Source: Sphingomonadales bacterium
Lineage (GTDB): Bacteria; Pseudomonadota; Alphaproteobacteria; SMXS01
Length of the DNA: 64,000 nt
Direction: 5' to 3'
Assembly (NCBI GenBank): GCA_022844405.1
Contig: JALHLV010000002.1
Span: 124,001 to 188,000 of the forward strand
The notes under the pieces are model-generated. The model worked only from the letters and a program-made list of their open reading frames with translations. It had not been told where the DNA came from and ran no database searches. The first letter of the stretch is position 1, and every line of letters starts with the position of its first letter. Both the position numbers and the translations under genes were made by a program. Shown one piece after another: positions 34,112 to 53,106 of this stretch.

Positions 34112-34201
34112 GGAGGGGTGGCCGAGCGGTTGAAGGCGCACGCCTGGAAAGTGTGTAAGGGTGCAAGCCCTTCGTGGGTTCGAATCCCATCCCCTCCGCC
34201 A
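34112..34201 (+). tRNA. tRNA-Ser (anticodon GGA)
   Basis: Acceptor GGAGGGG/CCCCTCC, anticodon loop with GGA (GCCTGGAAAGT), long variable arm (GTAAGGGTGCAAGCCCTTC), T loop GGTTCGAATCCC and encoded CCA. Sequence downstream turns more AT-rich, so this is the natural left border of the island, though no attachment repeat is seen. Confidence 0.95.
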
Positions 34202-34446
34202 GTTCTATCCTATTGTTTTCACGATTTGTTTTTGACTTCAAAGTGGGAAGGCCGTCTTGATCGTTCAGGGATTTCTTCCAGTTTGGGGGATATCCGATGC
34301 GAGAGCGGATTGGTGACCCACATTTGATTGGTCCCCAATCAAATCCCAGACGCCCTCTGATGGCCAGCTCAAGGAAGCGCTCCAGTTCATCCATGGATCA
34401 GGCCCAGCCAGTCGCATCCCGCCGCTCGCCGACTTGCCGGCCGCAG

Positions 34447-34863
34447 TCAGCCCATGGGTGGATTTTTCGGGAAACGGGGCAGCCCATCATTCGATGGCAT
34501 CCACGGCTGGGCGCTTTCGCACCAGATGTGCATGGACGGCTTCATGATCTCTGGATCATCCAGGCTTCCCGCCTTGACGATCCATATGCCAGGTGCCGCC
34601 TTCAGCTCGCTGAACAGGGGGGTGCCGCAATTCGGGCAGAACTTGCGACTGACAACATTGCCTGATTCCGCGGCCACGTCGAAGGCCCTGGGCTCGCCCG
34701 CCGTGAGCCGGAACGAAGCAGCCGGCACGGCGAGGACCGAGCTGAACCCGGTACCCGAGGCGTACTGGCAATCGCGGCAATGGCAATGCGCGGCAAAAAT
34801 GGGTTCGGCACTCGCCTCGTAGCGGATCTGGCCGCAACGGCATCCTCCGGTGAACGACATCAT
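34447..34863 (-). CDS. GFA/CENP-V family zinc protein
   Basis: 138 residues with the glutathione-dependent formaldehyde-activating fold: zinc ligands in GGCRCGQIRYEA, HCHCRDCQYASG and FCPNCGTPLF. Members form or bind S-hydroxymethylglutathione or similar thiol adducts; most are uncharacterised. It stands alone near the left edge of the selenium island. Confidence 0.88.
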   Translation of the reverse strand: MMSFTGGCRCGQIRYEASAEPIFAAHCHCRDCQYASGTGFSSVLAVPAASFRLTAGEPRAFDVAAESGNVVSRKFCPNCGTPLFSELKAAPGIWIVKAGSLDDPEIMKPSMHIWCESAQPWMPSNDGLPRFPKNPPMG

Positions 34864-35001
34864 CTAACCTCCCTGCTGGATCACGCCACAGTACCGCCTG
34901 CTTCGAGCAATGCTTGCCGCCAGGCATGCGGCAGTGTACGTGGCCTTACTTGTGCCGCCAGCGATAAGAGAACGGCTCGCCGAGAAGGCTTCAGAGCTGC
35001 C

Positions 35002-36180
35002 TCATTCGCCGTCGATACCAGGTGTTCTGGCCGCCATGCCGAACGAATTAAGGCCAAGATTTTCGCGGAGATCGGTCGTCGCATCAGTCGCCATTGCGTC
35101 AAGCGGAATGCCTGTTGCATCGGCGACCCGCACCATGCGCTCGAAGTTCCCTACGACGGCGGCGGCATCGACGAATCCATCGCCCCCCACGGCCGCAATT
35201 ACTGCCGCACGGGCATCGGCCAGTTCCCCGTCGCTCCCCGAAATGACGGCCTCGGCGAAACGCGCGAGGGTTTTGCCATGCGGCACCCGGTCATCTACCG
35301 CATCGGCACCAATGACAACGCCAGACAAATCGACCTCCTCGCCCTTTGTTCCCATGCTCAAACTGAGCATCATCGCGTGCGAGGCGGTTCAATAGAAACA
35401 GTCGTTAATCGCAGACACGCGTGCCGCGAGGAGTTCCAACTGTTCGCGGCCGAGCGTCCGTCCGTGCGAGAAGTCAGTCGCTCGGTCAAGGGGAATGTAT
35501 TGGGCGGCGCTGAGAATGCGCAGGTCGCGTACAGCATCGGGCACCAGGCTCATGGCCCGCAGTCCATAGTAGATGCTGCTGTCATCCCATAAATCGTCAT
35601 TTGGTGGCGCCGGCTGGCGGGCCGGCATCATGGCCACGAAGGCATCGCCGGCAGGTTCGACCTCAGGGCGAATGCGGCTGGGTTCGCCGGCAAGGGGTGC
35701 TGGTAATCGATGGAGCGGTACGCCCAGACCTCGACACGCCTGGTCAATGCTGCGCAGTGCAACACCGATGCCGAGAGCCTCCACATAATGCGCGTCGCTC
35801 AGTCCTGCGCTTGCAAGGCGTTCAATCGCCGTGGCCGTCATCCGCGTGGGGTTGGTCATCGCGAGATGAAGAATATCGATAATCTCTACCGGCAGCACGC
35901 CGTCATGGACTGGATCGGTTACGTGAGTGCCCACAATAGAATAGGGACTCAGCGCGGCCTTGCGTTCTTCACAGAAACTACATTTGTGGACCGTCCGCGA
36001 ATTCGCCGCGATGGCGACCCGTTCCGCGCCGGTCCACCACGCACCTGGCATGGCAAGGCGAGTCAGGAACAGCGCGTGAGCGCCAATGATGTCGTCGCGA
36101 ACCGGCACCTGACAATGGCCCATATCCTCAATGACGGATTGAAGAATTGCGTCATCGGCTACCTGATCGGTTCTCGGCAT
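35002..36180 (-). CDS. AhpD-like selenoprotein with CxxU motif (Sec264)
   Basis: Reading TGA at 35389-35391 as selenocysteine joins two open frames into one 392-residue protein. Around the TGA the protein reads SAINDCFY-U-TASHAMML, the CxxC-x3-H active site of AhpD/carboxymuconolactone decarboxylase proteins with Sec in place of the second Cys. An N-terminal half holds HKCSFC and may be a second, related domain. A hairpin with AGTTT loop (35354-35370) follows the TGA. The ATG at 36180 has an AGGGAG site; the frame opens to 36249. It is the last gene of selD-selA-selB. Predicted thiol/selenol peroxidase or reductase. Confidence 0.8.
35337..35384 (-). ncRNA. SECIS-like hairpin in the AhpD-like selenoprotein mRNA
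   Basis: Apical stem ATGCTC/GAGCAT with loop AGTTT at 35354-35370, beginning 18 nt after the TGA. An outer stem CCTCGC/GCGAGG may close it. A bacterial SECIS needs a G/U-bearing loop at this distance for SelB binding. Confidence 0.6.
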
Positions 36181-36296
36181 GGAATTTGCCCGCTCCCTTT
36201 GAACCCCAAGGGTTAATCTTACGCCACCATCGGCGTCAGCACCAATCATTGGAGTGCCACGGGAAGAGATTGCGCGATGGTGGTTCTGTATAGCTG

Positions 36297-38189
36297 CTAA
36301 CCCTGGAAAATACGGACGTCTTCGCGGCGCCGCGTTATCTTTTTCTTGTCGAGATACTCAAGCAGCGGTTGAAGATATTTGCGCGTCACGCCGAGATGTT
36401 CCCGTGCTTCGCCCAATCGGAACTGGGCAGGAGGCGGCCAGGCCCTACGCAGGGACGTTACCGCCTGCTCGATATCCACTACATGAAACAGAAACAGGTT
36501 TTTGCGCTTGAAGTCGTACAACGGCACCAGGCGGCCGGTCTCGATCAGGAGTTCGATCCGGGAGGCGTTGCGCTTGTCGTTTGCAAGGACCTCCTCCATG
36601 GTTGGGGGCATCAGCGGGATTTCCCGGATCTTGGCTTCCAGCTGCTGAATTCGGCCACGCTCGGTGCCGTCAAGCCCCGCCAAGGGGTCGAAACCCCTGA
36701 CGCCAATCCGGTCACCATTCGAATCCAGGTCGCCCCGGGCACAAAGCGCAGCGATTACAAGATCACCTGATGGCTTGGAGATGCCAAGTTTCTCGACCAA
36801 CTGGAGGCGTGTAATTCCGATGCGCGTCGGGAAAGCCAGGTGATGGGCCTGGACGAGTTTGATCGCCATTTGTGAGAGCATCTCGGCCTGGCGGGGCGCC
36901 AGAACGTGCCCTTCCATGCTGATAAGCGCCTGGCCATTGGTCAGAGCGAATCGCACGTCCTCGACAGGGGTCCCAAAGCGCTCCGCCATCATCGTCAGCG
37001 TAGTGCCGCCTGGTCCAGCCTGTTCCGCGACGGCCAGAACAGCGCTTTGCCGGTCACTACCGCTGGCGGCCAAAAGCTGCGCAATGGCGGTCTGATCATG
37101 CCGTTTCACGCAGGTGGCGCGTGTATTCAGAAAACGCCCGCCGCCGACGGTTTCGAGCGGCGAAATGGTTCTGACAATGAAGTGGTCCTGATCCCACGCA
37201 GCCTCGGGCGGTTTCATCCTGAACTGGACGATTGCGCTCTCCCCCGGATTGAGATCGTCGCGGTCAAGTATGCGCAGGTTGACGATGGTCTCCCTGGTGC
37301 CGTAAAGCAGCCGAACGGGCTTACCATTGTGAAGGCTTGTCTCTATGTCGCGCGCCATCTGCAGCGTCGCCGTCCACCATTCGGATCGGGCGAGCCAACC
37401 TGGAGACGCCAACGATTGACCTCGCTTTAGCCTGACCCCGCTTTCGACCCGGAGATTAACCGCTACTCTTTGTCCCGGCGCCGCCCGTACTGCTTCCGCT
37501 CCGTGGACCTCGAGGCGGCGCACCTTTGCAGCAATGCCCAGATCGGGCACTTCGGCTTCGTCGCCCACTTCCAGACTTCCGGCGCGCAATGTTCCAGTAA
37601 CCACGGTGCCGAACCCTGGCATCGTGAACACCCGGTCAAACGGCAGATAGAATTTTCCTGTGTCAGGCCGTTTTGTCCTTTCGGCGAACAGGTCATCGAG
37701 CGCGGCGACCAGACTGGCAAGCCCCTCGCCGGTGCGCGCGCAAACCGGAACGATCGCCGCACTTTCAAATCCCATGCGCGCAAGGTCTTCACCTATGGCC
37801 GTTTGCCGTACCGTCAGGTCGCTGGCTGTGACCAGATCAGTTTTAGTGAGGGCGATGACCGACCTTGTGATGCCCAGAAGAGAGATGATCCGAAGGTGTT
37901 CGCGGGTCTGAGGCATGATCCCCTCGTTCGCAGCAATGCAGACGAGCGCAGCGTCAATTCCCGTCGCGCCTGAGATCATGGTGCGGACAAAATCAGCGTG
38001 TCCCGGAGAGTCGATGAAGTCGATCAGACCTGTAGACGTCTTGAGATAGGCAAACCCCAGTACGATGGTCAGTCCGCGTTCGCGTTCTTCGGGAAGGCGG
38101 TCCGTTTCGATGCCGGTCAAGGCTTTGACCAGCGTAGTCTTGCCATGATCAACATGGCCGATAACGCCGATCGACAGATGCTCATCCAC
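36297..38189 (-). CDS. selB: Selenocysteine-specific elongation factor SelB
   Basis: 630 residues: GTPase domain (GVIGHVDHGKTTLVKALTGI, DSPGHADFV, TKTD), EF-Tu-like domains II-III and a C-terminal winged-helix region for SECIS RNA (LGVTRKYLQPLLEYLDKKKI). It brings Sec-tRNA to UGA codons. GTG start, 5 nt after selA, so translation is probably coupled. Confidence 0.96.
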   Translation of the reverse strand: MDEHLSIGVIGHVDHGKTTLVKALTGIETDRLPEERERGLTIVLGFAYLKTSTGLIDFIDSPGHADFVRTMISGATGIDAALVCIAANEGIMPQTREHLRIISLLGITRSVIALTKTDLVTASDLTVRQTAIGEDLARMGFESAAIVPVCARTGEGLASLVAALDDLFAERTKRPDTGKFYLPFDRVFTMPGFGTVVTGTLRAGSLEVGDEAEVPDLGIAAKVRRLEVHGAEAVRAAPGQRVAVNLRVESGVRLKRGQSLASPGWLARSEWWTATLQMARDIETSLHNGKPVRLLYGTRETIVNLRILDRDDLNPGESAIVQFRMKPPEAAWDQDHFIVRTISPLETVGGGRFLNTRATCVKRHDQTAIAQLLAASGSDRQSAVLAVAEQAGPGGTTLTMMAERFGTPVEDVRFALTNGQALISMEGHVLAPRQAEMLSQMAIKLVQAHHLAFPTRIGITRLQLVEKLGISKPSGDLVIAALCARGDLDSNGDRIGVRGFDPLAGLDGTERGRIQQLEAKIREIPLMPPTMEEVLANDKRNASRIELLIETGRLVPLYDFKRKNLFLFHVVDIEQAVTSLRRAWPPPAQFRLGEAREHLGVTRKYLQPLLEYLDKKKITRRREDVRIFQG

Positions 38190-38194
38190 CGGAA

Positions 38195-39586
38195 TCAGCC
38201 ACTGTCGGCTATGGCGGCGATCGCGCCTGCGATGTCAGCGATGTCGTCGTCCATCAGCGTGCGGACATCCAGGGTAAAACACTCGCCGATAATCCTGCCG
38301 ATGATCGCTGGCTCGTGGGCCCTTAACGCGGCAGTCAAATGCTCCGCGGAAATGCCCTCCAGCGTAATCCTCACGCCGACGGACTCAAGGTCAACCCCGG
38401 GAAGCGACCCGCCCCCCGCCTTCGATTGTACATGCGCTACCTCGGCCTTGGCTCCGGCGACAGAAGTGATCGCCTTTGCAAGCTTTCGGGCCTGTTTTGC
38501 AAGATCCGATGGGTCGGCTGTGAGCATCCTCAGCACAGGGATATCTTTGAGTGGATTGTGTGGTGCGCGGTAGAGCCGCAGCGTCGCCTCGAGAGCCGCA
38601 AGCGAAAGCTTGTCGACCCGCATCGCCCGCAACAGCGGGTTCTTGCGAATTTTCGCGAGCAATGAGGATCTTCCGACCATGATCCCGCATTGCGGCCCGC
38701 CGAGCAGTTTGTCGCCGGAGAATGTCACCAGATCGACCCCGGACCGGATGCTCTGGGAAACCGTTGGCTCGTCACCAAGACCATGGGCGGCCAGGTCGAC
38801 GATAGTGCCGCTGCCCAGATCCTCGACAAGAAGAAGTCCATTTTTGTGGGCCAGGTCGGCAAGGGTGGCCAGCGAAGGCTTTGTGGTGAACCCGACGAGC
38901 CTGTAGTTGCTGGTATGGGTGCGCAGAATGACGGCAGTTTCTTCGCCTATGGCTCCTTCGTAGTCGGCAAGGTGCGTCCTGTTGGTCGTTCCGACTTCGT
39001 GCAATCGAGCGCCGTTCTGAGAAATGACGTCAGGCACCCGAAATGAACCGCCTATTTCGACCAGTTCACCGCGTGAGACGATTACCTCCCGGTTCCGCGC
39101 GAATGTAGCCATGGCGATGGTCACCGCCGCCGCACAATTGTTAACGACAACCGCGTCCTCGGCGCCGGTCAACTCGCACAGAATATCCCGGACATGATCG
39201 TAGCGGGAGCCGCGCGCGCCCTTCTCGAGGTCGTATTCGATGTTGGCATAGCCCCGGGCCACGTCCTCCATGGCGGCAATCGCCTCTGGGGCCAACGGTG
39301 CCCGTCCCAGGTTTGTATGGATGATAATCCCGGTGCCATTTATGACGCGGCGGAGATTTGAGCGCCTTCTCGCTTCGAGCACTTGTTCCAGTCGGTTGAC
39401 AAAGGTGTCTGACTCAAAATCGGGCAGACTACCTCCATCCGTCAGATCGCGCCTGACCCTGTCGAACAGTTCCCGAAGCGCCGCGACAAGCTCAGCACGG
39501 GACCAATGCTCACGGAGGCCGGTAACCGCAGGCGATTCCAACACTTCGTTGACTTGGGGAATCCGCCTGAAGAGCTTCTTATCCAT
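38195..39586 (-). CDS. selA: Selenocysteine synthase SelA
   Basis: 463 residues; PLP enzyme converting Ser-tRNA-Sec to Sec-tRNA-Sec with selenophosphate. RRVINGTGIIIHTNLGRAPL and the PLP-lysine region DLVTFSGDKLLGGPQCGIMV are diagnostic. The start MDKKLFRRIPQV at 39586 is the family start; the frame continues upstream to 39628. Confidence 0.96.
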   Translation of the reverse strand: MDKKLFRRIPQVNEVLESPAVTGLREHWSRAELVAALRELFDRVRRDLTDGGSLPDFESDTFVNRLEQVLEARRRSNLRRVINGTGIIIHTNLGRAPLAPEAIAAMEDVARGYANIEYDLEKGARGSRYDHVRDILCELTGAEDAVVVNNCAAAVTIAMATFARNREVIVSRGELVEIGGSFRVPDVISQNGARLHEVGTTNRTHLADYEGAIGEETAVILRTHTSNYRLVGFTTKPSLATLADLAHKNGLLLVEDLGSGTIVDLAAHGLGDEPTVSQSIRSGVDLVTFSGDKLLGGPQCGIMVGRSSLLAKIRKNPLLRAMRVDKLSLAALEATLRLYRAPHNPLKDIPVLRMLTADPSDLAKQARKLAKAITSVAGAKAEVAHVQSKAGGGSLPGVDLESVGVRITLEGISAEHLTAALRAHEPAIIGRIIGECFTLDVRTLMDDDIADIAGAIAAIADSG

Positions 39587-39651
39587 TGAACTGATTGTAT
39601 CCCGCTTTCTCCCGACGATCCTAGACAAAGCAGGCGCAATTCCAACGGCAA

Positions 39652-40716
39652 TTAGTCCGCAACAATTGTGCCGGTTGGCCCCTCGGTTACCTCACCGATA
39701 TGCCACACCTGTTCGCCTGCCTCATGGAAGGCCGTCAATACGCGGCTCAGCGCTTCCGGCGCGACAGCGACCAGAAGTCCGCCAGACGTTTGCGGATCAT
39801 ATATCAGGCCGTGCCGCGCGGTCTGTCCGTTGGCTGTCTGGCTCACCCATTGACCGTAATAGTCTCGGTTCCGGTCCAACCCGCCTGAGCCAATGCCCTG
39901 CCCCAGCAAGCCTTCAGCGCCTGCCAGCACAGGTAATTCAGCCAGCCGGAATCGCATTGATACACCGGACAGATCGGCCATTTCGTGCGCATGTCCGGCT
40001 AGGGAAAAACCGGTTACGTCGGTGACTGCGTGGACGTCCAGACCGCCGCTGGTTCTGAGCAGCTTGACTGATTGGGCGCTTAGGCGCGTCATACTGTCGA
40101 TGGCCGCTCGTATGGACTCGCCGCTCGCCAAACCGCGCTTTAGGGCCGTCGCGATGATACCTGTTCCCAGCGGCTTGGTGAGCAGTAGCTGATCGCCCGG
40201 CCTTGCGCCCTCATTCCGATAAATTTTATCGAGTTCCACCAATCCGACGACAGCCAGGCCATACTTGGGTTCGTGATCGGTTATCGTGTGGCCGCCCGCG
40301 ACGACCGCCCCCGCTTCGAGCACCTTGTCCGCCCCGCCACGCAGTATGTCGCCAAGAATCCGAGGGTCCATGTCCTTCGGGAAAGCGGCTAGATTGATCG
40401 CGAGGACCGGCCGCCCGCCCATCGCGTAGACGTCCGACAATGCATTGGCTGCCGCAATCGCGCCAAATTCATACGGGTCATCAACGATGGGTGCAAAGAA
40501 GTCTGCTGTCAGGACAAGGGCTTGCTTATCATCCAATTTCAGCACAGCAGCATCGTCGGGTGCGCTCAACCCTCTGAGCACATCCGGGAAGTCCGCTTGC
40601 GGAAACATCAATTTCAATGGTCGCAAAACTTGCGACAGGTCCTCTGGCCCTAACTTGCCGGCTCAACCAGCCGACATAGCAAATTGGGTCAGGCGAACGT
40701 CAGCCCGATCCGTCAT
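39652..40716 (-). CDS. selD: Selenide, water dikinase SelD, itself a selenoprotein (Sec18)
   Basis: Makes selenophosphate from selenide and ATP. From ATG 40716 the protein reads LTQFAMSAG-U-AGKLGPEDLSQV: TGA at 40663-40665 stands where E. coli SelD has Cys17, with the catalytic Lys three residues later. The rest (RILGDILRGGADKVLEAGAV, YDPQTSGGLLVAV) is a complete SelD. Without Sec decoding, a caller would start at 40626 and lose the active site. Total 354 residues. First gene of the selD-selA-selB-ahpD-like unit. Confidence 0.93.
40620..40636 (-). ncRNA. SECIS-like hairpin in selD mRNA
   Basis: GTCGCA/TGCGAC stem with AGTTT apical loop, the loop starting 32 nt after the Sec TGA of selD. Same loop as in two other selenoprotein genes here. 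Confidence 0.6.
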
Positions 40717-40847
40717 GCCTTGATGACTCCTTGCAAGTTGAACACCCGGAACTTGTAGCGGTTCACCTTATTGGCGTCCACACGCCTTGACTTTGGTCCC
40801 GTAGGTAGCGAACGATCTCCCGCATAGGGCGAACGGCCATATTGCTT

Positions 40848-40941
40848 GGAGACGACTGGAGTCTGGTGGCTTCCACGGCCTTCAAAGCCGATGACACGTA
40901 GCGATACGTGTGGTGGGTTCGATTCCCATCCGTCTCCGCCA
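40848..40941 (+). tRNA. selC: tRNA-Sec (anticodon UCA)
   Basis: 94 nt with CCA: acceptor GGAGACG/CGTCTCC, anticodon stem CGGC/GCCG holding CTTCAAA (anticodon TCA), a long extra arm (GACACGTAGCGATACGTGT) and T arm GTGGGTTCGATTCCCAT. The long extra arm and UCA anticodon are specific to tRNA-Sec. It lies between divergent selD and the plus-strand selenoprotein operon. Confidence 0.95.
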
Positions 40942-40978
40942 ACTGCTTGCGGCACGCAAGCCGAGAGAGGAACAGACC

Positions 40979-42571
40979 TTGCCCGACACGCGCACGTTGC
41001 ACAGCTTCGCGCTAACGGATGCCGGCGGTGCACAACATTCCTTCCCCGGCGGACAGCAGGCGCTGGTGGCGTTTGTTAAAGAAGACTGTCCAACCTGCAA
41101 TTTGGTCATGCCGGTCCTCGAGGCGCTTTACAAGGCCTACGGACAGGAAGTTGATTTCCTCGTTGCCGGCCAGACAGCCACAGGTAATGCCAGGCTGGCG
41201 GAGGTACATCGCCTGAGTGTCCCGATCCTGGATGACTCCGCGCTGAAGACCTCTTTCGAATACGACATCGATACGGTGCCGACCTTGTTCTGGGCAAATG
41301 CCGGTGGTGAACTGATCAGCACGGTGATCGGATTTGTCCGGGAGGAGTGGCAGGCGCTGGATGCCGCAATTGGAAAGTCCACCGGGGCCGGACCGGCAAA
41401 CATTTCATGGGAAGATTTGCCGGCCTGGCGTCCCGGCTGCGGCTCTCTTTCCGTTGACCCCACGATTGCGGATCGCCTTAGGGCCGAGGCCTCCAACAGC
41501 CCGTTGCGGGCGCGGAGTATCGATATAGCGCCAGCCGATGACGAATTCGAATTCATGTTCGATCAGGGCTTTACCGACGGTCTGCCAGTGATCCCGCCAA
41601 CCCCGGAACGCGTGATCCGCATGCTTGGTGGCACCAAACGACATGCGCAGGACATCATCGCCCGGATGCCGCCGAATATGGGCGACGTAACGGTGGAGAA
41701 GATCGCCATCAACGCGGTCATGGCGGGATGCAAACCGGAGTACATGCCCGTGCTGATCGCCGGCATTGACGCGATCTGTACCGACGAATTCAACATTCAC
41801 GGGGTCATGGCGACCACCATGGGCGCCGCGCCAGTGATGGTGGTCAACGGCCCAATCCGTCACAGGCTGGGCATGAATATGAAGATGGGTGCTCTAGGCC
41901 AGGGCAACCGGGCAAATGCAACCATAGGCCGGGCGCTCAGGCTGATCATCCGCAATATTGGCGGCGCACGGCCCGGCGGAACAGAGCGCTCCACACTTGG
42001 CAATCCGATGAAGTTTACGATGTGTTTCGCCGAATGGGAGGAGCGTAGCAATTGGGCCCCCCTGCATGTGGAACGCGGTTTCAAGGCTGAGGATTCGGTC
42101 CTGACGGTGTTTGCGATGACAAGCGGTCCGACCCTGATCGTGGATCAGGATTCACGCGATGCTGAACAGGTTGCGGGTTCAATGGGCATGTCGCTTGAAA
42201 GCGTCTTTCATCCCAGGGTTCACCGGGCCGCGATCGATACGCTGTTGGTCGTCTGCCCGGAGCATGTCGATACCCTGAGCCGGGGAAATTATTCAAAGGA
42301 CGACCTGCGCAAGCGCATTCAGAGCGTTACCGAGCGGCCGCTCCGCGACCTGGTGGAAGATGAGAAGTCAGGTATCGGCCTGAAGCGGGACCGGGCCGCC
42401 GCATTGTCCGCCGAAAAACTGGATCGTATGGTGCCAAAATTCGCGAGCGAGGAGTTCCTGCACATTGTTGTCGCAGGTTCCGACGCCGGCAAGTTTTCGG
42501 GCGCCTTCCATGGCTGGGCCAGTGGCAAGATCGGCTCCATGCCTGTATCCAGGAAGATTGAAGACGTTTAA
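40979..42571 (+). CDS. Thioredoxin-fold protein with large C-terminal domain of unknown function
   Basis: 530 residues from TTG 40979, with GAGAGGAA 5 nt upstream. Residues ~1-125 form a thioredoxin-like domain with redox motif EDCPTCNLVMPV and cis-Pro strand IDTVPTLFW. The remaining ~380 residues begin MFDQGFTDGLPVIPPTPERV and contain conserved-looking MAGCKPEYMPVLIAGIDA and AGSDAGKFSGAFHGWASGK. I do not recognise an established function for it. The gene starts 37 nt after selC and 41 nt before the UGSC selenoprotein, so it may be the electron donor or partner of the selenoproteins. Confidence 0.8.
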   Translation: MPDTRTLHSFALTDAGGAQHSFPGGQQALVAFVKEDCPTCNLVMPVLEALYKAYGQEVDFLVAGQTATGNARLAEVHRLSVPILDDSALKTSFEYDIDTVPTLFWANAGGELISTVIGFVREEWQALDAAIGKSTGAGPANISWEDLPAWRPGCGSLSVDPTIADRLRAEASNSPLRARSIDIAPADDEFEFMFDQGFTDGLPVIPPTPERVIRMLGGTKRHAQDIIARMPPNMGDVTVEKIAINAVMAGCKPEYMPVLIAGIDAICTDEFNIHGVMATTMGAAPVMVVNGPIRHRLGMNMKMGALGQGNRANATIGRALRLIIRNIGGARPGGTERSTLGNPMKFTMCFAEWEERSNWAPLHVERGFKAEDSVLTVFAMTSGPTLIVDQDSRDAEQVAGSMGMSLESVFHPRVHRAAIDTLLVVCPEHVDTLSRGNYSKDDLRKRIQSVTERPLRDLVEDEKSGIGLKRDRAAALSAEKLDRMVPKFASEEFLHIVVAGSDAGKFSGAFHGWASGKIGSMPVSRKIEDV

Positions 42572-42612
42572 ACTGAACGCAAGTAACCTGTGTTAGCGTG
42601 AAGAGGCTCGGC

Positions 42613-43131
42613 ATGACCACGATCTTGGACCCGACGAACGAACGTGTTCCAGTTGAACGGCAATTGACAGCGCGTGGCGGTCAGATCACCGGCATTGTCG
42701 GTCTGCTCGACATTCGCAAGCCGCGTGGCGACGTATTTCTGGATCGGCTCGATGAACAGCTTCGGGCCAGATTGCCCGGAGTTGAGGTCAGACGCTATGC
42801 AAAGCCGACCTTTACCAAGCCATGTCCCGATGATCTGCGGCTGCAAATCAAGCAAGAGTGCAATTTCGTTGTTGAGGCGCTCGCCGATTGAGGCTCGTGT
42901 ACGACGTGCAGTTTGCACGACACGGTTTGGTTTGAAATCCAGGGAATTCCCTCCGTTTCCGTTGCCTCCGAGGAGTTCGTGGACGCGGCCGACGTGCAAG
43001 CGACCGCGCTGGGAATGAAGGATGCCAAGGTTGTCTTCGTCAGGCATCCCATCCAGGACGCCACGGACGATGAAATGCGCGGCAAGGCCGACGAGACCCT
43101 GGAGGCAATCTTGGACGCGTTGACGACATGA
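42613..43131 (+). CDS. UGSC-motif selenoprotein (Sec93)
   Basis: TGA at 42889-42891 read as Sec gives 172 residues with FVVEALAD-U-GSCTTCSLHDTVWFE, the UGSC motif that names this (seleno)protein family. A TTCS pair follows, a likely redox partner. Sequence on both sides of the TGA is protein-like (IVGLLDIRKPRGDVFLDRLD before; GIPSVSVASEEFVDAADVQA after). ATG 42613 has an AAGAGG site; a GTG lies at 42598. A strong hairpin follows the TGA. Predicted cytosolic redox enzyme; reaction unknown. Confidence 0.85.
42896..42924 (+). ncRNA. SECIS-like hairpin in the UGSC mRNA
   Basis: CGTGT/ACACG and CGTGC/GCACG stems stack around loop AGTTT (42910-42914) with an ACGA bulge on the 5' side. The hairpin starts 5 nt and its loop 19 nt after the Sec TGA, ideal for a bacterial SECIS. 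Confidence 0.75.
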
Positions 43132-43152
43132 CGATGGGTTGCGAGTCCTAGA

Positions 43153-44409
43153 GTGGCGCGCTTGGAGAACATGGACGAGACCCTTCGGGGACATCTCGAG
43201 CATTTGGAATGCCCAGATTTGGGCGACACACCACTGGTTGAAGGACCGCCGCTGCCGGAACGGCGCGTTGCGATTATTTCTACCGCGGGGTTGCAGCGGC
43301 CTAGCGACCGGCCTTTTGGCTTTGCTGCGGCGGACTACCGGGTCATTCCCAGAGAGTCGGCTGGCAACCTGCAGATCAGCCATCTATCGACCAATTTTGA
43401 CCGTTCTGGTTTTCAGCAGGATACGAACGTCATCTTTCCGCTCGACCGTCTGAACGAACTCGCTGCCAACGGAATCATCGGTTCGGTGGCTGACTACCAT
43501 TATTCGTTCATGGGCGCTTCAGACCCCATGACCATGAAGACCGCAGCACGTCAGATAGCAGGTCTTCTGAAGCAGGATCAGGTCGATGCGGTTCTGCTCA
43601 CGCCGGTCTGACCGTTTTGCACGCGCGCCGTTGGCGGGCTTGGCCACTTTCTAGAAGCGGCAGGCATCCCGACGGTCGGGATTAGCCTGGTGCGGCTTCA
43701 CACCGAGAAGATCCGCCCGCCACGAGCATTGTGGGTGCCCTTTGAGCTGGGTCGTCCATTGGGCGTGCCCAACGATGCCCCGTTTCAAACGCGCGTGCTG
43801 TGTGCGGCTCTGGACTTGCTGCAGCGAACTGCCGGTCCTGTGCTGGAAGATTACCTCGAAGATGCGCCGTCGGGTGCCGAGGAGGACGGCGAAGGCTGGG
43901 TTTGTCCGATCAGTCTGCCCGTACCTGACTCGAGGCCAGAGGGGGATGCAGCATTGCTCGACGAAATCCAGGCCATGCGGTCCTGGTATGATTTGGCGAG
44001 GCGCCGTCGCGGCCGAACGGCTGTTGGCACCAGCGGGATGGAGATAGAGGAAATCGCTAGGTACCTGGCTGCGTGGACTAAGGGCGAAATGCCCGATAAA
44101 CCGCCTGGGAACAACGAGATGGACGCGTCAACGCTGCTGCGTGTCGCATGTGATGACATCAAAGCCTATTACTCCGAAGGCGCAACTGCGCAGCCGGGCC
44201 GAAATGGTCGCAACCCGTCCGCAAAGGACATTGCTGTTTGGTTCTGGTCCACGACACAGGCCGCCAACCTGCTGTTGAAACTCAGACAGGTTCTTTCCAA
44301 TAACGAAGACCGTACGCTTGCCCTCGTGGCACAATTTCTGATCGTCCCCTATACAGAGACGGATCGACAGCCACCTTCGTCACTGCGACGAAGCCCCAAT
44401 CCGCCTTAA
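43153..44409 (+). CDS. GrdB/PrdB-like reductase selenoprotein (Sec153)
   Basis: TGA at 43609-43611 read as Sec joins two frames into 418 residues: QVDAVLLTPV-U-PFCTRAVGGLGHFLEA. This is the UxxC active site of the glycine/sarcosine/betaine/D-proline reductase selenoprotein B family. After it come VGISLVRLHTEKIRPPRALW and VPFELGRPLGVPNDAPFQTR. Start GTG 43153 is weak; ATG 43171 is an alternative. In anaerobes the family acts with a pyruvoyl subunit that is missing here, so the substrate is likely different. It follows UGSC by 21 nt. Confidence 0.88.
43626..43636 (+). ncRNA. Possible SECIS hairpin in the GrdB/PrdB-like mRNA
   Basis: CGCC/GGCG with loop GTT, 15 nt after the TGA. The stem is short and the loop differs from the AGTTT of the other three, so this call is weak. 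Confidence 0.35.
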
Positions 44410-44450
44410 ATCGCAACCTCAAAGCTGTGCCATTGGCGCTGACGGTGAAC

Positions 44451-44513
44451 ACCGAGTTTGTCGGCGTCGGCAGCCGGGCTATTTCGCACACCCGGGTTAT
44501 CCTGAGGCCATTG
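44451..44513 (+). pseudogene. Cytochrome P450 C-terminal remnant
   Basis: Encodes EFVGVGSRAISHTRVILRP, differing by one residue from the end of the intact P450 at 51652-52956. The DNA at 44466-44510 matches 52909-52953 at 44 of 45 positions. No upstream P450 sequence (haem loop, I helix) remains. Confidence 0.8.
44466..44510 (+). repeat. 45-nt direct repeat, copy 1
   Basis: Matches 52909-52953 at 44/45 positions, same orientation, 8.4 kb apart. Both copies are the 3' end of a P450 gene, one intact and one remnant, bracketing the TetR-TonB-P450 cluster. Confidence 0.85.
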
Positions 44514-44688
44514 GCTGGCCCCACGAATCCCGAGACTCCCTGTTCGACTTGCTTGCCGGTATGCACAGCATCTGCGGACAGATCGGAGCAGAGGCCCATC
44601 CAAAGTCGCCGAATTGATGGCCCGGCCGCATATTCTCAGACCGGGCGCGCCCGCATCTCCCCGCCCCTGTGGCTTGGGGGCGAAGTCG

Positions 44689-51651: not shown

Positions 51652-52956
51652 ATGAGCACCGCACTGCCGTCCCTGTCGACCGAGGGACTTTCCGTCACGA
51701 CGTTGGATGCGGCCGAGGAAATCATGGACGCCATGGTGCTGCGCTTCGAGCCGGACAACCTGCCGAAATACCAACGACTGCTGCAAGCCTACGGAGCGTT
51801 TGCGCCCGGCCACGGCTACCAGGTGGGCGACGACGTGACGGTTGCCCGGAATTTTCCCCTGCCGGAAGCGCCGACCCTGATGGCGCTGTCCTACGAGGCG
51901 GTGAGGAAATGCCTGTTCGACCAGAAGAACTTCAACGGCAAGCTCTATGACGGCTTCAATTCCAGCGTGGAAGGCGAGCCGGCGCACGAGGGATTGCCGC
52001 TGCTGGAGGGCGCGGAGCACCTGCGCCTCCGCCGGCTTCTTGGACAAGGTCTCAACCCCCGATCCATCAAGATATGGGAAGACCGGATGGTCAAGCCCGT
52101 GGTCACCCGCCTGCTCGATGCGCTTCCGCTCGATGAGCCTGTCGACCTGGCGAAAGGGTTCTGCCGTCCGCTCCCCGGCACTGCCGTCGGCGCCGTACTG
52201 GGCCTGCGTGATCAGGATCTCGATGCCTTCAACATGATGGCTTTCCTGATGTTCACCGGGCCGATAAACGAGGAAGGGCGAAAAGCGGAGCGCCGGATTG
52301 CGGATTATTTCGCGGCGCATGTGGAACAACGACGCGCGCTCGACGAGGCCGACCTGTCCGAGCGCGACGACATCATCAGCCTGATGGTCAAGGCGCGGGA
52401 CGGCGAGGACAGGTTGTCGACCGCCGAGATCGTCCCCAACCTGTTCTTCTTCCTGTTCGCCGGGAGCGATACGACTTACCTGACGCTGTGCAACATCATC
52501 TATTACCTGATCGAGGAACCGGGGCTGTTTGACCGCGTGAAAGCCGACCGCTCCCGGATCGCAGACCTGATCGAGGAAACCCTTCGCCTCAATCCACCAG
52601 GCCCGGTGATCGGCCGCAAGGCCAAGACCGACAGCGAGGTTTCCGGCTGCCCCATCGCTCAGGGAACGCCCATCACCATCAACCTGCTGATGGCCAATCG
52701 CGACCCCGCCGCCTGGAACGAGCCTGACAATTTCAATCTCGACCGGCCGGCCGAGGGGAAAACCCATCTGACCTTCGGATTTGGCCCCCACATCTGCCCC
52801 GGCATGCACCTCGCGCGCCTGGAGATGACCGTGGCAATCAACGAGCTGCTGGATCGTATCAGCGCGCTTGAATGGGATCCCGCCTTCGGGCGTCCCGAGT
52901 TCGTGGGAGTCGGCAGCCGGGCTATTTCGCGCACCCGGGTTATCCTGAGGCCATAG
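51652..52956 (+). CDS. Cytochrome P450 (second)
   Basis: 434 residues. I-helix FAGSDTTYLTL, EETLRL and haem loop FGFGPHICPGMHLARLE are complete. The C-terminus EFVGVGSRAISRTRVILRP is duplicated as a remnant at 44451. ATG is preceded by AGGGGAG. Only distantly similar to the first P450, so the two probably act on different positions or substrates. Confidence 0.95.
   Translation: MSTALPSLSTEGLSVTTLDAAEEIMDAMVLRFEPDNLPKYQRLLQAYGAFAPGHGYQVGDDVTVARNFPLPEAPTLMALSYEAVRKCLFDQKNFNGKLYDGFNSSVEGEPAHEGLPLLEGAEHLRLRRLLGQGLNPRSIKIWEDRMVKPVVTRLLDALPLDEPVDLAKGFCRPLPGTAVGAVLGLRDQDLDAFNMMAFLMFTGPINEEGRKAERRIADYFAAHVEQRRALDEADLSERDDIISLMVKARDGEDRLSTAEIVPNLFFFLFAGSDTTYLTLCNIIYYLIEEPGLFDRVKADRSRIADLIEETLRLNPPGPVIGRKAKTDSEVSGCPIAQGTPITINLLMANRDPAAWNEPDNFNLDRPAEGKTHLTFGFGPHICPGMHLARLEMTVAINELLDRISALEWDPAFGRPEFVGVGSRAISRTRVILRP
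52909..52953 (+). repeat. 45-nt direct repeat, copy 2
   Basis: Within the 3' end of the intact second P450; matches 44466-44510 at 44/45 positions. Confidence 0.85.
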
Positions 52957-53106
52957 GCCGGCAAACACGGCGGCGTGCCGCGAGAGCCGACCCATCCGGC
53001 ACGAGCTCCGCTCAGCACCTCAATTGCCGGCCTGTCGAACCTACGGGTTGGGGGCGTCGCATCTGGTTGCTATGGTGTCGCAAATCCCCGGCTGACGAGA
53101 CGACGC

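What the first reader, a model, noticed from the sequence alone, without database searches (positions are those of the whole stretch)
34112..44410. Compact selenocysteine island with full machinery and at least four selenoproteins
selD, selA, selB and tRNA-Sec are packed with AhpD-like, UGSC and GrdB/PrdB-like selenoproteins plus a thioredoxin-domain protein, in two divergent units around selC. No formate dehydrogenase is present. The zone is visibly less GC-rich than its flanks, begins after tRNA-Ser and ends in gene remnants. A portable Sec-dependent redox module in an organism with aerobic oxygenases is unusual; what reaction it performs is unknown.
Basis: partly seen in the sequence, partly recalled or inferred. 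Interest (0 to 1): 0.9.

Follow-up and report, generated by a model that had tools for sequence, protein, structure and literature searches.

The report
Selenium gene island with GrdB-like reductases
This bacterium carries a transferable block of genes that makes selenium-containing proteins together with several of its clients, and one poorly understood client (UGSC) turns out to be a distant relative of the selenium subunit of anaerobic glycine reductase, always paired with an unnamed partner protein, which suggests that oxygen-tolerant bacteria use the same bond-breaking chemistry on substrates not yet known.

Summary
selD, selA, selB and tRNA-Sec are complete. The in-frame TGAs in selD, an AhpD-related gene, UGSC and a PrdB-like gene are Sec codons: relatives keep TGA (UGSC 119/120; AhpD 24/24; PrdB-like 48/53, with Cys only in genomes without tRNA-Sec), and each is followed by a hairpin whose loop is mostly GU-led. 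The block starts at a tRNA-Ser where synteny with five relatives ends, and it has low GC3. All three client families are already named (NF041238, UGSC PF24696, GRDB PF07355), so selenoproteins as such are not new. Sec use is also not rare: 55 of 385 class genomes have tRNA-Sec. New here: (1) UGSC is a distant member of the GrdB/PrdB superfamily. (2) UGSC almost always adjoins an unnamed domain X (no Pfam or NCBIfam match), sometimes fused, up to 8 UGSC copies per genome. (3) In the window type X carries a thioredoxin domain and a PGCGS cysteine found only with it. (4) Trx-X-UGSC recurs beside selC in 12 named genomes; PrdB-like lies beside sel genes in 12 others; AhpD is an independent client. 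Best reading: X-UGSC is a thioredoxin-fed two-component reductase working like glycine/D-proline reductase protein B. Substrate unknown.

The parts
34112..34201 (+). tRNA-Ser(GGA); left edge of the island (synteny with relatives ends at its 3' end)
   Evidence: ARAGORN; blastn with five relatives
35002..36180 (-). AhpD-related selenoprotein, CFYU-TASH motif (CxxU...H), U at TGA 35391-35389
   Evidence: NF041238 390 bits; 24/24 TGA
35354..35370 (-). predicted SECIS hairpin of the AhpD-related gene, 7-bp stem, loop GUU, 25 nt after TGA
   Evidence: (z -2.3)
36297..38189 (-). selB, Sec-specific elongation factor
38195..39583 (-). selA, L-seryl-tRNA(Sec) selenium transferase
   Evidence: PF03841 E 1.9e-147
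39652..40716 (-). selD, selenophosphate synthase; itself a selenoprotein (TGA 40665-40663)
40620..40636 (-). predicted SECIS hairpin of selD, 7-bp stem, loop GUU, 33 nt after TGA
40848..40941 (+). selC, tRNA-Sec (anticodon UCA)
   Evidence: 76.8 bits to RF01852
40979..42571 (+). Trx-X protein, 530 aa: ResA/StoA-like thioredoxin domain (CPTC 37-40), PGCGS (Cys154), then domain X
41429..42568 (+). domain X, about 380 aa, partner of UGSC; no Pfam or NCBIfam match
42613..43131 (+). UGSC selenoprotein, 172 aa, U93 at TGA 42889-42891; distant GrdB/PrdB relative
42905..42919 (+). predicted SECIS hairpin of UGSC, 6-bp stem, loop GUU, 19 nt after TGA
43153..44409 (+). PrdB/GrdB-like selenoprotein, 418 aa, U153 (UPFC) at TGA 43609-43611, with a C-terminal extension of about 190 aa
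43626..43636 (+). predicted SECIS hairpin of the PrdB-like gene, loop GUU, 18 nt after TGA
44452..44519 (.). 68-nt remnant, 91% identical to 52895-52962, just past the last gene

Best explanation
A horizontally acquired Sec island holding the Sec-insertion machinery (selD-selA-selB and selC) and its own clients. The core client, X-UGSC, is a two-component reductase that works like protein B of glycine/betaine/D-proline reductase. X (or X with UGSC) binds a small substrate; the Sec of UGSC attacks a C-heteroatom bond; the resulting selenoether or selenenyl-sulfide is resolved by the UGSC cysteine; and electrons arrive from the CPTC site of the fused thioredoxin domain through Cys154 of PGCGS. 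The PrdB-like protein is a second reductase of the same superfamily. AhpD-CFYU is an independent peroxide/disulfide adaptor. Shown: Sec codons, SECIS-like hairpins, X-UGSC pairing, the Trx fusion, the Cys154-Trx coupling, homology of UGSC to GrdB, linkage with sel genes. Inferred: the reaction type, the electron path and the role of X. Unknown: the substrate.
For: Sec: TGA kept in 119/120 UGSC, 24/24 AhpD, 48/53 PrdB-like; the 5 Cys loci come from 3 genomes without tRNA-Sec; co-occurrence with tRNA-Sec p 8e-30, 2e-25, 5e-24; hairpins with GU loop at fixed offset, 121/175 against 4.7% of shuffles; UGSC stem paired in 104-119 of 119 and loop GUN in 117. GrdB kinship: 20/45 UGSC proteins hit TIGR01917 (best 8.5e-5), 16/45 hit GrdF (best 7.7e-6), others hit TIGR01918 and PrdB; in the members examined the Sec region falls on profile positions about 332-402; profile comparison with the PrdB-like set aligns U with U and ExxGIP with ExxGIP (E 0.0045 and 0.0057). 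X adjoins UGSC in nearly all loci and is fused in some. Trx; PGCGS in 13/13 Trx-type X and 0/31 others. Up to 8 UGSC genes per genome parallels the 8 grdB of a fluoroacetate-reducing bacterium (PMC10838667).
Against: No GrdE/PrdA (PF09338) or GrdA (PF04723) match in 13 Sec genomes, though no positive control rang, so a pyruvoyl partner and the acceptor protein seem to be missing. UGSC-GrdB E-values are modest and the profile-profile probability was low (7.8%, 6.4%). The fold of X alone could not be searched. Gene neighbours give no consistent substrate.
Confidence: 0.5

Rival explanations
1. Antioxidant module: Trx-X-UGSC and AhpD-CFYU form a thioredoxin-driven peroxide or disulfide reductase system; no C-heteroatom bond is cut.
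For: The Trx domain is closest to ResA/StoA/TlpA; AhpD family match with CxxU...H; other Trx-, Prx- or AhpD-like frames with UGA lie near some related loci.
Against: UGSC matches GrdB, not a peroxidase family; many X-UGSC pairs have no Trx; several paralogues per genome are more typical of substrate-specific enzymes; AhpD does not track UGSC.
Confidence: 0.2
2. Selenium housekeeping: Trx-X-UGSC next to selC and sel genes delivers or reduces selenium for SelD.
For: selC lies directly upstream of Trx-X in 12 of 24 closest named loci, with selA and selB.
Against: Most related loci of this type (49 of 56 in the other named loci) and the multi-copy paralogues lie away from sel genes; 21 of 55 Sec genomes lack UGSC.
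Confidence: 0.1
3. True D-proline or glycine reductase of the known kind, brought in from anaerobes.
For: The PrdB-like protein matches PF07355 above its cut-off and PrdB with E 6e-27.
Against: 94.6 bits against a PrdB cut-off of 300; no PrdA/GrdE or GrdA found; different partner X; a C-terminal extension of about 190 aa.
Confidence: 0.07
4. Pure selfish linkage: unrelated Sec clients collect beside the sel genes because they are only useful together, with no shared pathway.
For: AhpD is independent of UGSC and PrdB-like within Sec decoders (p 1.0), and PrdB-like is often beside sel genes without UGSC.
Against: The Trx-X-UGSC pair itself is constant, and UGSC and PrdB-like co-occur beyond Sec (p 0.009, not corrected for phylogeny). 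This rival concerns the whole block and is compatible with the best explanation for X-UGSC.
Confidence: 0.4

Closest known systems
UGSC family (seleno)protein, PF24696/NF041046 (Zhang and Gladyshev 2008, PMC2398784)
   Same: Window protein is a full-length member with the UGSC motif. That paper also reports a UGSC fusion to an 'Unknown_1' domain, which may be X (its supplement was not readable here).
   Different: The paper suggests a Trx-like fold; the present profile hits place UGSC with GrdB/PrdB. The regular pairing with X and the Trx-PGCGS fusion were not found in the papers searched.
Glycine/sarcosine/betaine reductase protein B (GrdB) and D-proline reductase PrdB
   Same: Same superfamily for both UGSC (weak, many members) and the PrdB-like protein (strong); UxxC active site; thioredoxin as likely electron source.
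   Different: No GrdE/PrdA or GrdA found; partner is X; bacteria carry aerobic gene sets; PrdB-like has an extra C-terminal part.
Fluoroacetate reductase farACEB (PMC10838667)
   Same: GrdB-type Sec protein with a partner that makes no pyruvoyl group; several paralogous B proteins per genome.
   Different: Anaerobe; uses GrdE-type partner and feeds GrdA/GrdC.
AhpD_rel_CFYUT, NF041238
   Same: Window protein 390 bits, full length, CFYU motif.
   Different: None seen.
fdoGHI-selABCD clusters of Alphaproteobacteria (PMC8124441)
   Same: Client selenoprotein genes linked to selABCD and moved horizontally.
   Different: Here the clients are UGSC, PrdB-like and AhpD, not formate dehydrogenase, and selC is separate from selB.
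Tso and SAO selenoprotein operons (cited in PMC13188914)
   Same: Several selenoprotein genes side by side.
   Different: Named Tso families (TsoA/B/C/X/Y) are not the families seen here; original papers were not held.

Membership tests
Selenoprotein gene | In-frame UGA with conserved protein on both sides | tested here: met
Selenoprotein gene | Bacterial SECIS hairpin soon after the UGA | tested here: met
   (predicted only; single-sequence z-score significant only for AhpD)
Selenoprotein gene | Sec shown in the protein | not testable with these tools
   needs 75Se or mass spectrometry
UGSC family (PF24696/NF041046) | Score above curated cut-off | tested here: met
   164.3 bits (cut-off 25) and 166.4 bits (cut-off 125)
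AhpD_rel_CFYUT (NF041238) | Score above curated cut-off | tested here: met
   390.3 bits, cut-off 175
GRDB superfamily (PF07355), PrdB-like protein | Score above curated cut-off | tested here: met
   39.2 bits, cut-off 22
D-proline reductase PrdB (TIGR04483) | Equivalog score above cut-off | tested here: not met
   94.6 bits, cut-off 300
Glycine/D-proline reductase | Pyruvoyl-forming partner GrdE/PrdA (PF09338) | tested here: inconclusive
   no match in 13 genomes, but no control genome rang
Glycine reductase | Selenoprotein A (PF04723) | tested here: inconclusive
   no match in 13 genomes, but no control genome rang
GrdB/PrdB superfamily, UGSC protein | Homology of the Sec domain | tested here: met
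   20/45 members hit TIGR01917, best 8.5e-5, same profile region. The window's own UGSC does not hit by itself; weak profile-profile support
Thioredoxin-like (ResA/StoA/TlpA) | Fold and CxxC of residues 1-140 | tested here: met
   model pLDDT 94; Z 17.6 over 133 residues
Mobile element or genomic island | tRNA edge, atypical composition, absence in relatives | tested here: met
Mobile element or genomic island | Integrase and flanking direct repeats | tested here: not met
   no copy of the 23-nt tRNA-Ser 3' end elsewhere in the window within 3 mismatches; no integrase noticed among proteins examined

The most novel reading that the evidence does not exclude
X-UGSC is a large, unrecognised branch of the glycine-reductase superfamily: aerobic, thioredoxin-fed, two-component selenoenzymes present in up to eight paralogues per genome, each cutting a C-heteroatom bond in a different substrate, with X as a new kind of partner in place of the pyruvoyl subunit.
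Probability: 0.4. Interest if true: 0.78.

Novelty: new variant of a known kind. Interest (0 to 1): 0.58.

Why it matters
UGSC was one of the most abundant selenoprotein families in the 2008 ocean survey and has had no function since. Placing it with GrdB/PrdB, and finding its regular partner X with a thioredoxin feed, turns 'unknown redox protein' into a concrete, testable enzyme hypothesis, and would carry Sec-dependent reductive cleavage from strict anaerobes to oxygen-tolerant bacteria. The recurrent sel plus client islands also show how a genome could gain Sec coding in one transfer.

Tried and rejected
X against the PrdB-like profile: no relation found (E 0.37). X against Pfam and NCBIfam: nothing credible. 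PDB sequence profiles of UGSC, PrdB-like and X: nothing credible. Substrate from neighbours of Trx-less pairs: family III CoA-transferase in 5 of 130 near genes and at most one of 101 distant genes, p 0.07 to 0.23, not significant. Viral contigs with Trx-X: none. tRNA-Ser 3' end as a duplicated attachment site: no second copy. A first translation of UGSC in wrong frames was discarded. tRNA-Sec counts use only hits above 60 bits, because the Rfam cut-off also catches other long-arm tRNAs. Two key papers (Haft and Gwadz 2023; Haft and Tolstoy 2025) were not held, so prior mention of X or of the island there cannot be excluded.
Full report
What is there. Between tRNA-Ser (34112-34201) and about 44410 lie seven genes and tRNA-Sec in two divergent units. 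On the minus strand: selD (39652-40716), selA (38195-39583), selB (36297-38189) and an AhpD-related gene (35002-36180). On the plus strand: tRNA-Sec (40848-40941), a thioredoxin-domain protein (40979-42571), UGSC (42613-43131) and a GrdB/PrdB-like gene (43153-44409). The families are confirmed by Pfam and NCBIfam. SelD itself has an in-frame TGA at its active-site position, so there are four predicted selenoproteins.

The TGAs are Sec codons. The five PrdB-like loci with a cysteine codon come from three genomes (G145, G151, G354), all without a strong tRNA-Sec. The one UGSC with TAG is in Blastococcus, a group known to decode UAG as Sec, including in UGSC proteins (PMC5330540). In 385 genomes of the class, a strong tRNA-Sec hit (above 60 bits) occurs in 55; UGSC is in 38 genomes, 34 of them with tRNA-Sec (p 8e-30); GRDB-type genes in 44, 34 with (p 2e-25); AhpD-CFYU in 27, 26 with (p 5e-24). 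Fisher tests here ignore phylogeny.

SECIS. Each of the four genes has a hairpin after its TGA with a GUU loop: 19 nt (UGSC), 18 nt (PrdB-like), 25 nt (AhpD) and 33 nt (selD). Over 175 homologous sites the best hairpin loop begins with GU in 121, against 4.7% in shuffles. In 119 UGSC genes the six stem positions are paired in 104 to 119 and the loop is GUN in 117. Part of this is forced by the protein code, and the sites are related, so it is supporting rather than independent proof; folding energy alone is unusual only for the AhpD gene.

Island. GC is 0.594 against 0.67 in the left flank, and third-position GC is 0.64-0.70 in all seven genes against 0.94 in the two left-flank genes measured. 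Synteny with five relatives ends at the 3' end of tRNA-Ser. In relative G005 it resumes at window 61055 after about 15 kb of other sequence, so the whole 34.2-61.1 kb stretch is a variable region and the Sec island is its first 10 kb. UGSC is missing in all six other genomes of the genus held. No duplicated tRNA end was found and no integrase was noticed, so the block is not a recognisable active element.

Which genes belong together. UGSC adjoins a second protein, here called X (the C-terminal 380 residues of the thioredoxin-domain protein), in nearly every locus examined, with a few loci in which the pair is split by other genes. In some genomes the two are fused. UGSC occurs in up to eight copies per genome (G194). 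In the window's type, thioredoxin is fused to X. The closest named relatives (64-75% identity in X) come from Gammaproteobacteria, Hyphomonadaceae, Caulobacteraceae, Rhodobacterales and Chloroflexi bins. Of these 24 loci, 12 have selA and selB nearby and tRNA-Sec just upstream of Trx-X. A tree of 74 Trx-X proteins mixes alpha- and gammaproteobacterial sources around the window sequence; bins may hold foreign contigs, so this hints at transfer without proving it. The PrdB-like gene is next to sel genes in 12 other genomes, at 43-54% identity over its length. Within the 55 Sec decoders UGSC and PrdB-like co-occur (p 0.009), AhpD with neither (p 1.0).

What UGSC is. UGSC was suggested in 2008 to have a Trx-like fold (PMC2398784). 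When 45 diverse members were scanned, 20 matched glycine reductase selenoprotein B (best 8.5e-5), 16 sarcosine reductase GrdF (best 7.7e-6), 9 the general selenoprotein B model and 4 PrdB. In the members examined one by one the Sec region falls at profile positions about 332-402. Profile comparison with the PrdB-like set aligns the Sec residues and the following ExxGIP motif (E 0.0045 and 0.0057), though with low stated probability. Together these make UGSC a distant member of the GrdB/PrdB superfamily. The window's own UGSC does not reach significance alone.

What X is. X has no credible Pfam or NCBIfam match. Trx-X was modelled with confidence (pLDDT 94); residues 2-138 are a ResA/StoA-type thioredoxin domain with CPTC (Z 17.6). 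The fold of X alone was not tested. Invariant or nearly invariant residues include Cys37, Cys40, Cys154 (PGCGS), Asp200, His274, Asn290 and Glu352. The PGCGS motif is present in all 13 Trx-type X proteins and absent from all 31 others checked, which suggests that Cys154 passes electrons from the thioredoxin domain.

Likely mechanism. In glycine and D-proline reductase, a Sec in a UxxC site attacks carbon, displaces nitrogen, and a thioredoxin-type dithiol re-reduces the protein (established knowledge; summarised in PMC13188914 and PMC10838667). A GrdB-type pair that makes no pyruvoyl group is reported to reduce fluoroacetate, and several substrate-specific B proteins can coexist in one genome (PMC10838667). 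X-UGSC fits that pattern: a Sec domain of the same superfamily, a fixed partner, multiple paralogues, a thioredoxin feed in one clade. I infer reductive cleavage of a C-heteroatom bond. GrdE/PrdA and GrdA were not found in 13 Sec genomes, with the caution that no control rang. No neighbour gives the substrate.

Novelty. All three client families and their Sec content were known. The GrdB/PrdB placement of UGSC, the X pairing and the Trx-PGCGS coupling were not found in the papers I could read; the 2008 paper mentions a UGSC fusion with an 'Unknown_1' domain that may be X, and two relevant papers were not available. I rate it a new variant of a known kind.

Noticed in passing
L222 1569-2753 (G006:C98): G006, a complete-looking genome of the window's own genus, has a PrdB-like gene with TGA at the Sec site but no strong tRNA-Sec and no selA hit. 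Either a stranded former selenoprotein gene or a foreign contig of 6 kb.
   Followed up: partly
L117 11101-11613: UGSC of Candidatus Blastococcus massiliensis has TAG in place of TGA; agrees with published UAG-Sec decoding in Geodermatophilaceae.
   Followed up: yes
window 34205-61055: The stretch after tRNA-Ser is a variable region: relative G005 holds about 15 kb of other sequence there, so this tRNA looks like an insertion hotspot.
   Followed up: partly
L046 13413-14201: A further frame open through TGA with motif YRGHWUPYC, resembling peroxiredoxin selenoproteins, beside the same kind of island.
   Followed up: no
L056 12007-13158, L057 6774-7895, L116 8378-9499: A thioredoxin-like frame open through TGA (TWASWUGCRADL) near Trx-X-UGSC in three loci; possible further selenoprotein partner.
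   Followed up: no
L078 11783-13993, L090 11809-13974: An NADH-dehydrogenase-like/SelD fusion follows UGSC in Henriciella and a Rhodobacteraceae bin.
   Followed up: no
window 34447-34863 (-): Small Cys-rich protein resembling the GFA family (by eye) lies between tRNA-Ser and the AhpD-related gene.
   Followed up: no
window 43838-44406: The C-terminal extension of about 190 aa of the PrdB-like protein has no credible Pfam match but is conserved in most of its relatives.
   Followed up: partly
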